Shown here in pieces: positions 2,136-19,886 of a DNA stretch of 21,050 bases; positions within the stretch are counted from its first letter, which is position 1, and every line of letters begins with the position of its first letter. The position numbers were made by a program, and so were the translations under genes. The notes under the pieces were generated by a model that was given only the letters and a program-made list of their open reading frames with translations, was not told where the DNA came from and did no database searches. The stretch covers positions 1-21,050 of the IMG/VR virus record IMGVR_UViG_3300044970_000512; one strand, given 5' to 3'. This DNA comes from a virus.

Positions 2136-2673
2136 TGATATGCCATGGGTTAATCTCACACAAAAAGAGATTGAAGAACTCCGCAACAAAAAACACGAAC
2201 TGACTGAATATGGCAAAGAACAACTGAAACGACTTATGAGAAACCAAGAACCTTATCCTGATGCTATGTTTGAGGAAGCTGAGCGTCGTGAAGCAGAACG
2301 CAAGGCTCTTGATGCCCTTGATGAAATCTACGAGAAACACGGGGATGCTATGTTGCGTCTTGCTGAAATTGAGAAGGATCAGTGGGAACGAGAGGAAAGA
2401 AGTAGAACAGTTCTTTCACGATATAATCACTTCTATAATGAAGAATGTTCTGGTATGCCTCACGGGACGCCAATCACACCAGAACATATGCAGGCAATGA
2501 CACTTGAATGTATGATTGACGCTCTCCGTTGTGAGAATATGAACATGGAGTATGATGCCATTGCGATTGATGACATCAAGGATTTGATTGATGGATTATA
2601 TCGTCAGAGTAATGAGTATCTTGAACGAGTGAGACAAAACAATGAACGAAGAATCACGAAAGAAAGCACTTGA
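2128..2673 (+). CDS. Hypothetical charged helical protein (181 aa)
   Basis: I start at the ATG at 2128, which overlaps the upstream stop; a TTG at 2116 is a weaker alternative. Residues about 40-95 form a long, highly charged helix (FEEAERREAERKALDALDEI, then EKHGDAMLRLAEIEKDQWER). The DAM-LAEIE part recurs as KYSDAMKELAEIEGRE near the N-terminus of the next protein, so the two share a segment. The C-terminus is helical with conserved-looking acidic patches. No function can be assigned. The 3' end overlaps the next gene by 32 nt, more than the usual 4 nt. Confidence 0.75.
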   Translation: MNDDMPWVNLTQKEIEELRNKKHELTEYGKEQLKRLMRNQEPYPDAMFEEAERREAERKALDALDEIYEKHGDAMLRLAEIEKDQWEREERSRTVLSRYNHFYNEECSGMPHGTPITPEHMQAMTLECMIDALRCENMNMEYDAIAIDDIKDLIDGLYRQSNEYLERVRQNNERRITKEST

Positions 2674-3031
2674 ATTTGGAATAGAAGCAATTCACAAGTA
2701 TTCTGATGCGATGAAAGAACTTGCAGAGATTGAGGGTCGGGAGAGAGAAACCCCAGTTTATAGGTTCTTTGCGATTGATTACTTTGCGACTGGTGAGGGT
2801 AGATCTATTTGGCTGATGATTTGTCGTTATCATCTTGAAGAGAGGGATTATGAGTTTACAAAATTTGCAAACTTTGTTGGTGATGATCATTATCTACGCG
2901 GATTTGATGAACTTACAGAGCGAGAGTTTCTGGATAAGTATACGCGATTTATTCCCAACCTGATTGCCAATATGCTTCGGAATAAAACTATTGGTACTTG
3001 GCAAACACATTTACACTTTAATCTCTCATAG
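2642..3031 (+). CDS. Hypothetical protein (129 aa)
   Basis: The ATG at 2642 lies within the end of the preceding gene and starts MNEESRKKALEFGIEAIHKY. The first 35 residues are a helix paralogous to part of the upstream protein. The remainder (YRFFAIDYFATGEGRSIWLM...FVGDDHYLRGFDELTEREFL) looks like a small alpha/beta domain. This is the last gene of the first run: a gap of about 80 bp with a strong promoter follows. The C-terminal region has no recognisable catalytic motif. Confidence 0.75.
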   Translation: MNEESRKKALEFGIEAIHKYSDAMKELAEIEGRERETPVYRFFAIDYFATGEGRSIWLMICRYHLEERDYEFTKFANFVGDDHYLRGFDELTEREFLDKYTRFIPNLIANMLRNKTIGTWQTHLHFNLS

Positions 3032-3087
3032 GACACTTTCTAAACTGGCACACGGGAACTCCACAAACCCTGCGAATACCCTATAAT
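3031..3087 (+). promoter_or_regulatory. Early promoter with upstream palindrome (copy 1)
   Basis: A perfect -10 box TATAAT lies at 3082-3087. The imperfect palindrome GGACACTTT...AAACTGGCAC begins at 3031, 51 nt upstream of the -10 start. At 17-bp spacing the -35 position reads CTCCAC, not TTGACA. The predicted start near 3094 gives a short leader to the ATG at 3113. The right half-site AACTGGCAC is the best preserved in the window. Confidence 0.75.
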
Positions 3088-3112
3088 ACACCCATAAACA
3101 CCCATTATTGTG

Positions 3113-3376
3113 ATGACTTTTCAACCCTACAACATTGTTCCTGGAACTGAGATTCTTCATAGTTTGACTGATGTTTATGAACTTTGTGATGAAGCAGAGG
3201 GAATGACTTATCGTGTAGAACTCAATGCTGATAATGCGGGAGTTTATATTCGGTCAAGTGAAAAGGGACATGAAGAAGGTTCTAAAGACATTAGTGAAGA
3301 TATGTCTATCGGCAACAAACAACTTGCAATCGTTGTTGCTCGTCGTATTCTTGAACTTTATGGAGAACTGAAATGA
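3113..3376 (+). CDS. Hypothetical small protein (87 aa)
   Basis: This is the first gene after the TATAAT promoter. I use the ATG at 3113; a GTG directly before it is in frame. The protein (MTFQPYNIVPGTEILHSLTD...) has a beta-rich centre (MTYRVELNADNAGVYIRSSE) and a C-terminal helix (LAIVVARRILELYGELK) that ends much like the ITFAR-LE-IGE tails upstream. That may mean a distant relation, but the identity is too low to insist on. The stop overlaps the next ATG (ATGA). Function is unknown. Confidence 0.75.
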   Translation: MTFQPYNIVPGTEILHSLTDVYELCDEAEGMTYRVELNADNAGVYIRSSEKGHEEGSKDISEDMSIGNKQLAIVVARRILELYGELK

Positions 3377-16184: not shown

Positions 16185-16360
16185 TGGACTTCCTAACGTA
16201 TAAAGAACGAGAATTGATTTATAGATCAGTTCAATACTATAAAGAACATTTCGATTCATCCAACGAAGAACTTAAATGGGACTGCGATGTAGTTTTGGAA
16301 AAGTTTTGTCCATATGTTAATATCAATGGAATTGAACCTGGGTTTAGATCGGATGTGTAA
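16184..16360 (+). CDS. Hypothetical small protein (58 aa)
   Basis: The ATG at 16184 shares a base with the preceding TGA, and the frame runs to a TAA at 16358-16360. The protein (MDFLTYKERELIYRSVQYYK) is a charged helix followed by an acidic segment (FDSSNEELKWDCDVVLEKFC) and a short tail. Its position in the coupled chain is the main support. No motif is recognised. Confidence 0.6.
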   Translation: MDFLTYKERELIYRSVQYYKEHFDSSNEELKWDCDVVLEKFCPYVNINGIEPGFRSDV

Positions 16361-16362
16361 AG

Positions 16363-16485
16363 ATGACTGAAGACCAACTAATTTTGATTGAGTGCCTTGC
16401 TGATGATGAAGAATGGCAAGAATGGGAACAAAAAGCACAACAATACAATGTAACGATTGGTTACTACATCGCTGAGTTCGTGTGA
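16363..16485 (+). CDS. Hypothetical very small acidic protein (40 aa)
   Basis: The ATG at 16363 lies 2 nt after the previous stop, and the TGA at 16483-16485 is embedded in the GTGACAGTT half-site of the next promoter palindrome. The peptide (MTEDQLILIECLADDEEWQE, then WEQKAQQYNVTIGYYIAEFV) is a single acidic helix with a hydrophobic end. Its length is at the limit of confidence; support comes from operon spacing. Confidence 0.55.
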   Translation: MTEDQLILIECLADDEEWQEWEQKAQQYNVTIGYYIAEFV

Positions 16486-16539
16486 CAGTTTGCGAACTGG
16501 TACAGAGGGCCTTTACAGGGCCCTTTTTTCATGTATTAT
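16482..16539 (+). promoter_or_regulatory. Early promoter with upstream palindrome (copy 4), nested with a terminator
   Basis: GTGACAGTT (16482-16490), TGCG, AACTGG (16495-16500) then TAC form the palindrome. The -10 TATTAT lies at 16534-16539, 52 nt from the palindrome start. A near-consensus -35 TTTACA (16512-16517) lies 16 bp upstream of the -10 and covers most of the loop of the terminator hairpin. A start near 16546 would be leaderless for the ATG at 16546. Confidence 0.72.
16507..16529 (+). terminator. Intrinsic terminator
   Basis: GGGCC (16507-16511), loop TTTACAG, GGCCC (16519-16523), then TTTTTT (16524-16529). This is a GC-rich stem followed by six T, the classical Rho-independent form. 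It ends the run 15951-16485 and isolates the downstream gene. Confidence 0.8.
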
Positions 16540-16545
16540 GGCCAC

Positions 16546-17439
16546 ATGAAGAACACTCACCTAGAACATCCCGAAGACGCGATCCTGAACGATGGTCGGG
16601 ATGGTGCAAAGAATGTCCTGCGATTCCTGCGGGAACGCAACAGCAAACTGTCTGTAAAGTATGATGGTGCTCCTGCAATCGTGTGGGGTACTTGTCCTTT
16701 CACGGGTAGATTTTTTGTTGGTACGAAAAGTGTATTCAACAAGAAAAAGATCAAGATCAATTATTCTCACTACGACATTTCTGTCAATCATGATGGGAAT
16801 GTTGCGTCGATTCTGCATGTTTGTTTCGACAATCTCCCTCGCATCAAAGGTATTGTGCAGGGTGATTTCATCGGTTTCGGTGGTAATGACTTCTACAAGC
16901 CTAACACGATTGAATACAACTTCAGTCGTCTTGTGGAAGAGAATGTGATCATTGCTGCACACACTTCCTACACCAGTTCTACTCATCTGAAAGACGCAGT
17001 TGCATCGTTCGGTGTTGATGAGGAACTGCAATCTCCTAATGTTAAGTTCCTGAAAACTGATGCACACTTTACCTCCCGTCGTCGTCGAATTGATCTCCTT
17101 CTTGGTCTTGCAAGTGTGGCTATCAATTTTGTTAAGTTCCCTTCGCAAAAAGAAGGACAAGAACTCAAAGTAGCTGTGAACAAGTGCATCCGCGAACAAC
17201 GCGACATTGCAGAGTCGGGTATGGACAACAACCTGATGATTCTCTACAAACTCATCATTGAGATCAAAGAGCTTCTCATGGAAGGTATCACCTCCGTTGA
17301 GAATGTTCAATGTTACATTGGTGATGAAAAGTGCGATCATGAAGGTTATGTAATGACCAACAAGTTTGGTACTTTCAAACTGGTGAATCGTCGTCAGTTT
17401 TCTTATGCAAACTTTACTCTCAAAAAATCCTGGAGCTGA
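16546..17439 (+). CDS. Ligase/nucleotidyltransferase-fold protein, DUF6267-like (297 aa)
   Basis: I start at the ATG at 16546 (MKNTHLEHPEDAIL) because the -10 box lies over the alternative ATG at 16531. Residues 38-48 (KYDGAPAIVWG) fit motif I K-x-D-G of covalent nucleotidyltransferases, with Lys38 as the candidate AMP/GMP acceptor. GDFIGF (106-111) suits motif III, EGYV (266-269) motif IV, and FKLVNR (277-282) motif V. This order is that of DNA/RNA ligases and capping enzymes. A C-terminal OB domain is absent. I recall similar proteins as DUF6267 in cyanophages. A role in RNA or DNA end repair, or transfer to a protein, is possible but unproved. Confidence 0.75.
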   Translation: MKNTHLEHPEDAILNDGRDGAKNVLRFLRERNSKLSVKYDGAPAIVWGTCPFTGRFFVGTKSVFNKKKIKINYSHYDISVNHDGNVASILHVCFDNLPRIKGIVQGDFIGFGGNDFYKPNTIEYNFSRLVEENVIIAAHTSYTSSTHLKDAVASFGVDEELQSPNVKFLKTDAHFTSRRRRIDLLLGLASVAINFVKFPSQKEGQELKVAVNKCIREQRDIAESGMDNNLMILYKLIIEIKELLMEGITSVENVQCYIGDEKCDHEGYVMTNKFGTFKLVNRRQFSYANFTLKKSWS

Positions 17440-19440: not shown

Positions 19441-19578
19441 ATGTTTTCTATTCTCACTATTGTCGCCGCATGGTTCGCCTTTGGCTATTGTGTCACTGAC
19501 ATTATTCTGAATGCCCGAAGTGCTAAGCGTCTGGATGAAATGTTGAATGACATTGAGGAGATGCAGAAGAAAGATTGA
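19441..19578 (+). CDS. Single-pass small membrane protein (45 aa)
   Basis: The ATG at 19441 is preceded by GGAGGTTAATT. One N-terminal hydrophobic segment (MFSILTIVAAWFAFGYCVTD) is followed by a charged helix (ARSAKRLDEMLNDIEEMQKK). It is probably an inner-membrane anchor with a cytoplasmic coiled coil. It lies 2 nt before the RlpA-like gene, so the two are probably co-translated, and this protein might supply membrane localisation for its partner (inference). Confidence 0.68.
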   Translation: MFSILTIVAAWFAFGYCVTDIILNARSAKRLDEMLNDIEEMQKKD

Positions 19579-19580
19579 TT

Positions 19581-19886
19581 ATGATTTTAGCTGGTTTGAT
19601 GTGTGGCATTGCTACATACTATGGAATCGGAGATGGCTTTCATGGAAAACTCACGGCTAACGGGACTAGGTTTCATGCTCATAATCTTACTGCAGCTCAC
19701 CCTTATTTGCCTTTCGGCACGAAACTGAGAATCACCAATCAAGATAACATGAAACAGGTGATTGTAAGAGTCAATGATCGTGGGCCATACAGCCACGCAG
19801 ACATTGATCTTTCGTATGGAGCTTTCAGGAAGATTGCTCCTCCATCCAAAGGTAACGCAGTTGTCTGTTATCGGGTGATCGGTTAG
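19581..19886 (+). CDS. RlpA-like double-psi beta-barrel protein (101 aa)
   Basis: The sequence follows the RlpA/DPBB pattern: ATYYGIGDGFHGKLTANGTR, NLTAAHPYLPFGTKLRITN, VIVRVNDRGPY, DIDLSYGAFRKIAP. The residues H40 and the NDRGP and DIDLS motifs are those of the family. RlpA proteins act as lytic transglycosylases or bind peptidoglycan in the periplasm. Here the start MILAGLMCGIATYYG has no proper signal peptide, so delivery would rely on lysis-stage membrane damage or a partner. A TTG at 19575 adds two residues only. It may assist host cell-wall degradation. Confidence 0.85.
   Translation: MILAGLMCGIATYYGIGDGFHGKLTANGTRFHAHNLTAAHPYLPFGTKLRITNQDNMKQVIVRVNDRGPYSHADIDLSYGAFRKIAPPSKGNAVVCYRVIG

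What the first reader, a model, noticed from the sequence alone, without database searches (positions are those of the whole stretch)
16482..16546. Terminator and promoter share the same bases
The intrinsic terminator (GGGCC/GGCCC stem, six T) has TTTACAG as its loop. TTTACA is the best -35 for the TATTAT -10 box at 16534, with a 16-bp spacer. The stop codon of the upstream 40-aa gene is part of the palindrome just before it. End of one unit, operator, terminator and start of the next fit in about 65 bp. The predicted transcript would begin at or next to the ATG at 16546, which implies a leaderless message.
Basis: partly seen in the sequence, partly recalled or inferred. Interest (0 to 1): 0.6.

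Follow-up and report, generated by a model that had tools for sequence, protein, structure and literature searches.

The report
Phage promoter nested inside a terminator
In this virus of cyanobacteria, about 65 bases carry the stop codon of one gene, a palindromic control site, a transcription terminator and the promoter of the next gene, with the promoter's -35 box in the terminator's loop; relatives keep this layout while swapping the stem bases, so it is a real, compact regulatory cassette, a variant of a kind already described in T4-like phages.

Summary
The window is a 21-kb fragment of a T4-like cyanophage; the gene at 16546 is DUF6267/phrog_455. From this sequence alone nothing exceeds chance; relatives decide it. 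In 50 non-redundant upstream regions the -10 box ends exactly 6 nt before the ATG in 40, and the base before the ATG is a pyrimidine in 40/40: strong support for a leaderless start. In 16 relatives the stem arms covary (33 double changes versus 11.8 in shuffles, 0/500) while the loop TT of the -35, the T-run and the -10 core stay fixed. The palindrome is not incidental: a dyad TGTGMCASTT-N4-AASTGKCACA lies 29-30 nt upstream of TATAAT in many cyanophage promoters and not in T4, RB49 or KVP40. Best reading: a self-insulating phage promoter, related in design to PeSL terminator/promoter cassettes, with an added dyad and, at DUF6267, a leaderless start. KVP40 already shows nested terminator/promoter cassettes, so this is a new variant of a known kind. 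Termination, initiation and the dyad's binding protein are unmeasured.

The parts
16363..16485 (+). 40-aa ORF whose stop codon TGA (16483-16485) lies inside the dyad
   Evidence: conserved in close relatives L002, L004, L005, L019; stop-in-dyad seen in many other cassettes
16481..16504 (+). 24-bp dyad TGTGACAGTT-TGCG-AACTGGTACA, probable regulator site
   Evidence: fits the class dyad, score 26.7, exactly 29 nt from the -10
16505..16529 (+). intrinsic-terminator hairpin and T-run
   Evidence: spacer fold -13.1 kcal/mol, z -4.1; covariation in 16 relatives
16512..16517 (+). -35-like TTTACA at the apex/loop of the terminator
   Evidence: TT invariant and TTKAC-like loop kept while the arms change
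16534..16539 (+). -10-like TATTAT
16546..16548 (+). predicted +1 and start codon of a leaderless message
   Evidence: predicted from spacing conserved in 40/50 and -1 pyrimidine in 40/40; not measured
16546..17439 (+). DUF6267 / phrog_455 gene served by the promoter

Best explanation
A self-insulating phage promoter cassette used by sigma-70-type RNA polymerase. At the RNA level, transcripts arriving from upstream form the hairpin and stop in the U-run (16524-16529). At the DNA level the same bases hold the -35 box (in the loop), the -10 lies just beyond the T-run, and 29 nt upstream of the -10 sits a 24-bp dyad that probably binds a regulator. Initiation is predicted at the A of ATG 16546, giving a leaderless DUF6267 message. 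The terminator keeps upstream transcription from occluding the promoter and gives the gene its own timing. Shown: the arrangement, its conservation, stem covariation and the fixed spacings. Inferred: that it terminates and initiates, that the message is leaderless in vivo, that a protein binds the dyad, and the insulating role.
For: -10 to ATG distance of 6 nt in 40/50 relatives with a pyrimidine at -1 in 40/40; stem covariation with fixed loop -35, T-run and -10 core; dyad at fixed 29-30 nt from TATAAT in G001, S-SSM7, P-SSM2 and the window, in S-PM2 and P-SSM4, which did not supply the matrix, and in IMG/VR loci; spacer folds better than shuffles, -8.4 versus -3.5 kcal/mol; in cyanophages -10 boxes sit 17-21 nt from terminator loop centres 42 times against about 12 expected from other distances; a 76% identical cassette stands before a helicase gene in S-T4 with the same predicted +1 and an 18-nt leader.
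Against: No RNA data. Many members of the promoter class lack the hairpin or T-run (24/106 and 4/106 for perfect dyads), so termination is not needed for the promoter. TATTAT and TTTACA are imperfect boxes. About 10 of 50 DUF6267 loci lack the 6-nt spacing, and Syn9 and S-SRM01 have a leader there. Relatives are not independent samples.
Confidence: 0.77

Rival explanations
1. Only the promoter is functional; the inverted repeat is a DNA-level feature (a PeSL-style recombination point or a cruciform at the -35) and termination is incidental.
For: Many spacers of the class fold as inverted repeats without a T-run; the cassette is found before different genes.
Against: At DUF6267 the T-run is invariant (five T columns) next to a covarying stem, which is the signature of a terminator; covarying arms do not suit homologous exchange, which needs the same sequence.
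Confidence: 0.12
2. Only the terminator is functional; the -35/-10 resemblance is accidental and DUF6267 is read from an upstream promoter by read-through, with ATG 16531 or 16546 as the start.
For: Promoter-like sites are at chance level in this region; an in-frame ATG at 16531 exists.
Against: The fixed 6-nt -10 to ATG distance and the fixed dyad to -10 distance have no reason under this view. ATG 16531 is not conserved: S-CREM1 has an in-frame TAA two codons before the conserved MKNTHLEHPED start. There is no ribosome-binding site upstream of either ATG.
Confidence: 0.08
3. The coincidence of both signals is chance.
For: Counts of such sites in this 3-kb region equal the shuffled expectation.
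Against: Conservation, covariation and fixed spacings across many lineages.
Confidence: 0.02

Closest known systems
PeSL (promoter early stem-loop) composite terminator/promoter motifs of T4-like phages (Arbiol 2010, Comeau 2014; cited in PMC4503421; the papers themselves were not held)
   Same: A compact stem-loop terminator joined to an early-type sigma-70 promoter between genes in variable regions of T4-like phages. KVP40 has nested copies with TTGAC in the 5' arm, a T-run and TATTAT.
   Different: In RB49 the terminator lies wholly upstream of the -35 (tandem). Here the -35 is in the loop, a 24-bp dyad sits 29 nt from the -10, and the start is leaderless.
MotA-dependent middle promoters of T4
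   Same: An upstream box at a fixed distance from a -10, with a weak -35 in many members.
   Different: The box here is a 24-bp dyad centred near -53, not a single box near -30 (MotA box position from general knowledge); the dyad pattern is absent from T4.
Early-gene regulatory element reported for cyanophage Syn9 (Doron 2016, recalled from the abstract; not held)
   Same: Possibly the same element: Syn9 has four members of the dyad class.
   Different: Could not be compared; the published motif was not available.

Membership tests
PeSL terminator/promoter cassettes | stem-loop intrinsic terminator joined to a sigma-70-type promoter in an intergenic gap | tested here: met
PeSL terminator/promoter cassettes | repeated in the genome in front of different genes | tested here: met
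   several copies in G001; S-T4 copy before a helicase gene
PeSL terminator/promoter cassettes | mediates recombination between cassettes | not tested
   the S-T4 copy is compatible, but no exchange was traced
PeSL terminator/promoter cassettes | early expression | not testable with these tools
   no expression data for this phage
Intrinsic terminator | G+C-rich RNA hairpin followed by a U-run, conserved by covariation | tested here: met
Intrinsic terminator | transcripts end in the U-run | not testable with these tools
   needs 3'-end mapping
Leaderless mRNA | 5' end at or within a few nt of the start codon | tested here: inconclusive
   predicted by conserved -10 to ATG spacing and the -1Y/+1A pattern; no 5'-end data
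MotA-dependent middle promoter | a single MotA box in place of the -35 | tested here: not met
   a dyad well upstream of the -35 is found instead; dyad pattern absent from T4

The most novel reading that the evidence does not exclude
The dyad-binding factor makes termination and initiation a coupled switch: polymerase that terminates in the hairpin stays on the DNA and re-initiates at the promoter lying beneath it, so that the leaderless message is made in step with the upstream unit.
Probability: 0.08. Interest if true: 0.8.

Novelty: new variant of a known kind. Interest (0 to 1): 0.52.

Why it matters
It defines a testable cyanophage promoter class (dyad - 29 nt - TATAAT - six nt - A), shows a -35 box kept in the loop of a covarying terminator, and predicts a leaderless phage gene conserved in many cyanophage lineages. 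It gives exact predicted start sites and a search model for gene regulation in abundant aquatic viruses, and points to a regulator that has not been identified.

Tried and rejected
Rfam on 16300-16700: no match. Single-sequence statistics: uninformative. Two-mismatch search of the half-site in the window: at chance level. Host-operator idea: the exact dyad occurs in only 44 stretches of all GTDB contigs, mostly outside picocyanobacteria (one Cyanobium MAG), so a host regulon is not supported. ATG 16531 as the start: rejected by conservation. T4, RB49 and KVP40 as holders of the dyad class: none found. My first hairpin scan had a loop error, fixed. The PeSL papers and the Syn9 transcriptome paper were not held, and literature searches found no description of this element.

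Full report
What the window is. The window is an IMG/VR virus record of 21,050 bases. The region matches T4-like cyanophages at protein level and by distant DNA similarity. The gene at 16546 is DUF6267 (Pfam E 2.5e-88) and phrog_455.

Observation. From this sequence alone neither the promoter-like nor the terminator-like count exceeds shuffles. The case rests on relatives.

Relatives of the gene. Eighty IMG/VR loci and eight annotated phages gave upstream regions, and Syn9 was added. After removing those at least 90% identical over 60 nt, 50 remained. A -10-like box (at least 4/6, A2 and T6) ends exactly 6 nt before the ATG in 40 of them; the other distances from 3 to 30 have 0.9 each on average. 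The base before the ATG is C or T in all 40. With the usual -10 to +1 distance this places +1 at the A of the ATG. The regions are related by descent, so 40/50 is not 40 independent events, but they are diverse and even the -10 words differ.

The hairpin. In 16 relatives with strong hairpins (chosen for that, so percent paired is favoured) the stem changes from GGGCC/GGCCC to GGGGG/CCCCC, CCCC/GGGG or GGGGTC/GACCCC. Pair counting gives 84.4% paired against 56.7% in shuffles, 33 two-sided changes against 11.8, and a covariation score of 0.655 against 0.210, with 0/500 shuffles reaching each; sliding the partner lowers all of them. Invariant columns are the TT of the loop -35, five T of the run, a TG, the A and last T of the -10, and the ATG. 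S-CREM1 carries TTGACA at the apex of a perfect stem.

The dyad. A matrix built from G001, S-SSM7 and P-SSM2 finds the 24-bp dyad at 29 or 30 nt from TATAAT in 13/13, 17/22 and 16/23 hits (P-SSM2 has three more at 28). These three genomes supplied the matrix, so their counts are partly circular. The window, not used to build it, has two hits, both at 29. Reversed sequences give 0-4 scattered hits. S-PM2 and P-SSM4, also not used to build it, show the same peak; T4 and KVP40 have none; RB49 has none at 29/30. Syn9 has four members, one of them before its DUF6267 gene. In GTDB genomes the exact dyad is nearly absent. Class members have A at +1 in 43/51, most often ATA, and leaders of mostly 15-24 nt. 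DUF6267 promoters differ in having ATG at the same place, so an ATA to ATG change in the first three transcribed bases would be enough to make the start leaderless (inference).

Hairpins across the class. The 29-30 nt spacer folds at -8.4 kcal/mol on average against -3.5 in shuffles, with 35/58 below z -1.5. For promoters with a perfect dyad the excess is smaller: 24/106, only 4 of them with TTTT. The terminator is therefore an optional overlay on the promoter, frequent at DUF6267. Without using the dyad at all, cyanophage terminators have a -10 placed 17-21 nt from the loop centre 42 times, against about 12 expected from other distances.

Compactness. The stop codon of the upstream ORF lies within the dyad in many cassettes and, in several P-SSM2 cases, in the TAA of TATAAT.

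A copy before another gene. In S-T4 a 70-nt stretch 76% identical to the window's cassette precedes a DNA helicase gene, with the same predicted +1 and an 18-nt leader, while the DUF6267 gene of S-T4 has no such element.

Comparison with known systems. PeSLs are composite terminator/promoter motifs of T4-like phages; the primary papers were not held and are known here through PMC4503421 and memory. RB49 shows a tandem form, with TTGACA after the T-run. KVP40 shows nested ones such as GGGTTGACTGCGGTCAGCCCTTTCGCGTATTAT. The nested layout is therefore not unique to cyanophages. What appears new is the dyad at fixed spacing, the covariation around a kept loop -35, and the leaderless start. The Syn9 transcriptome study (Doron 2016), which as I recall from its abstract reports a novel early-gene element, was not held and may describe the same dyad; if so, that part is already known.

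Mechanism. Most likely the terminator insulates the promoter from upstream transcription. Recycling of terminated polymerase to nearby promoters has been shown in vitro (PMC6978380) and is an attractive but untested extension.

Limits. There are no expression data; predicted starts rest on spacing; the regulator is unknown; early timing is assumed from the PeSL analogy, not tested.

Noticed in passing
16546-17439: DUF6267 looks like a member of the polynucleotide ligase / nucleotidyltransferase superfamily: invariant KYDG, HEGYV and K-x-x-x-R motifs; a confident model (pLDDT 89.8) whose best PDB matches are DNA and RNA ligases, weakly (best E 2.6e-3).
   Followed up: partly
3029-3113: A second member of the dyad promoter class: dyad 3029-3052, 29 nt, TATAAT 3082-3087, predicted +1 at 3094, 19-nt leader to ATG 3113, no strong hairpin; the upstream ORF 2642-3031 ends with TAG inside the dyad.
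   Followed up: partly
L007, L045, L076, L086 immediately upstream of DUF6267: An alternative conserved upstream sequence, about GTGTCCCTATAGT, abuts the ATG directly in some relatives, with no dyad or terminator.
   Followed up: no
KVP40 (L203-L215), e.g. 21169, 39856, 121399, 150224: Vibrio phage KVP40 carries several near-identical nested terminator/promoter elements, GGGTTG(A)C-loop-GCAGCCC-T-run-cgTATTATAGC.
   Followed up: partly
19575-19886: ORF whose sequence looks like an RlpA-like / double-psi beta-barrel protein (by eye).
   Followed up: no
P-SSM2 55771, 58549, 60640, 62002 (+): Upstream ORFs run through the whole promoter and stop at the TAA inside TATAAT.
   Followed up: no
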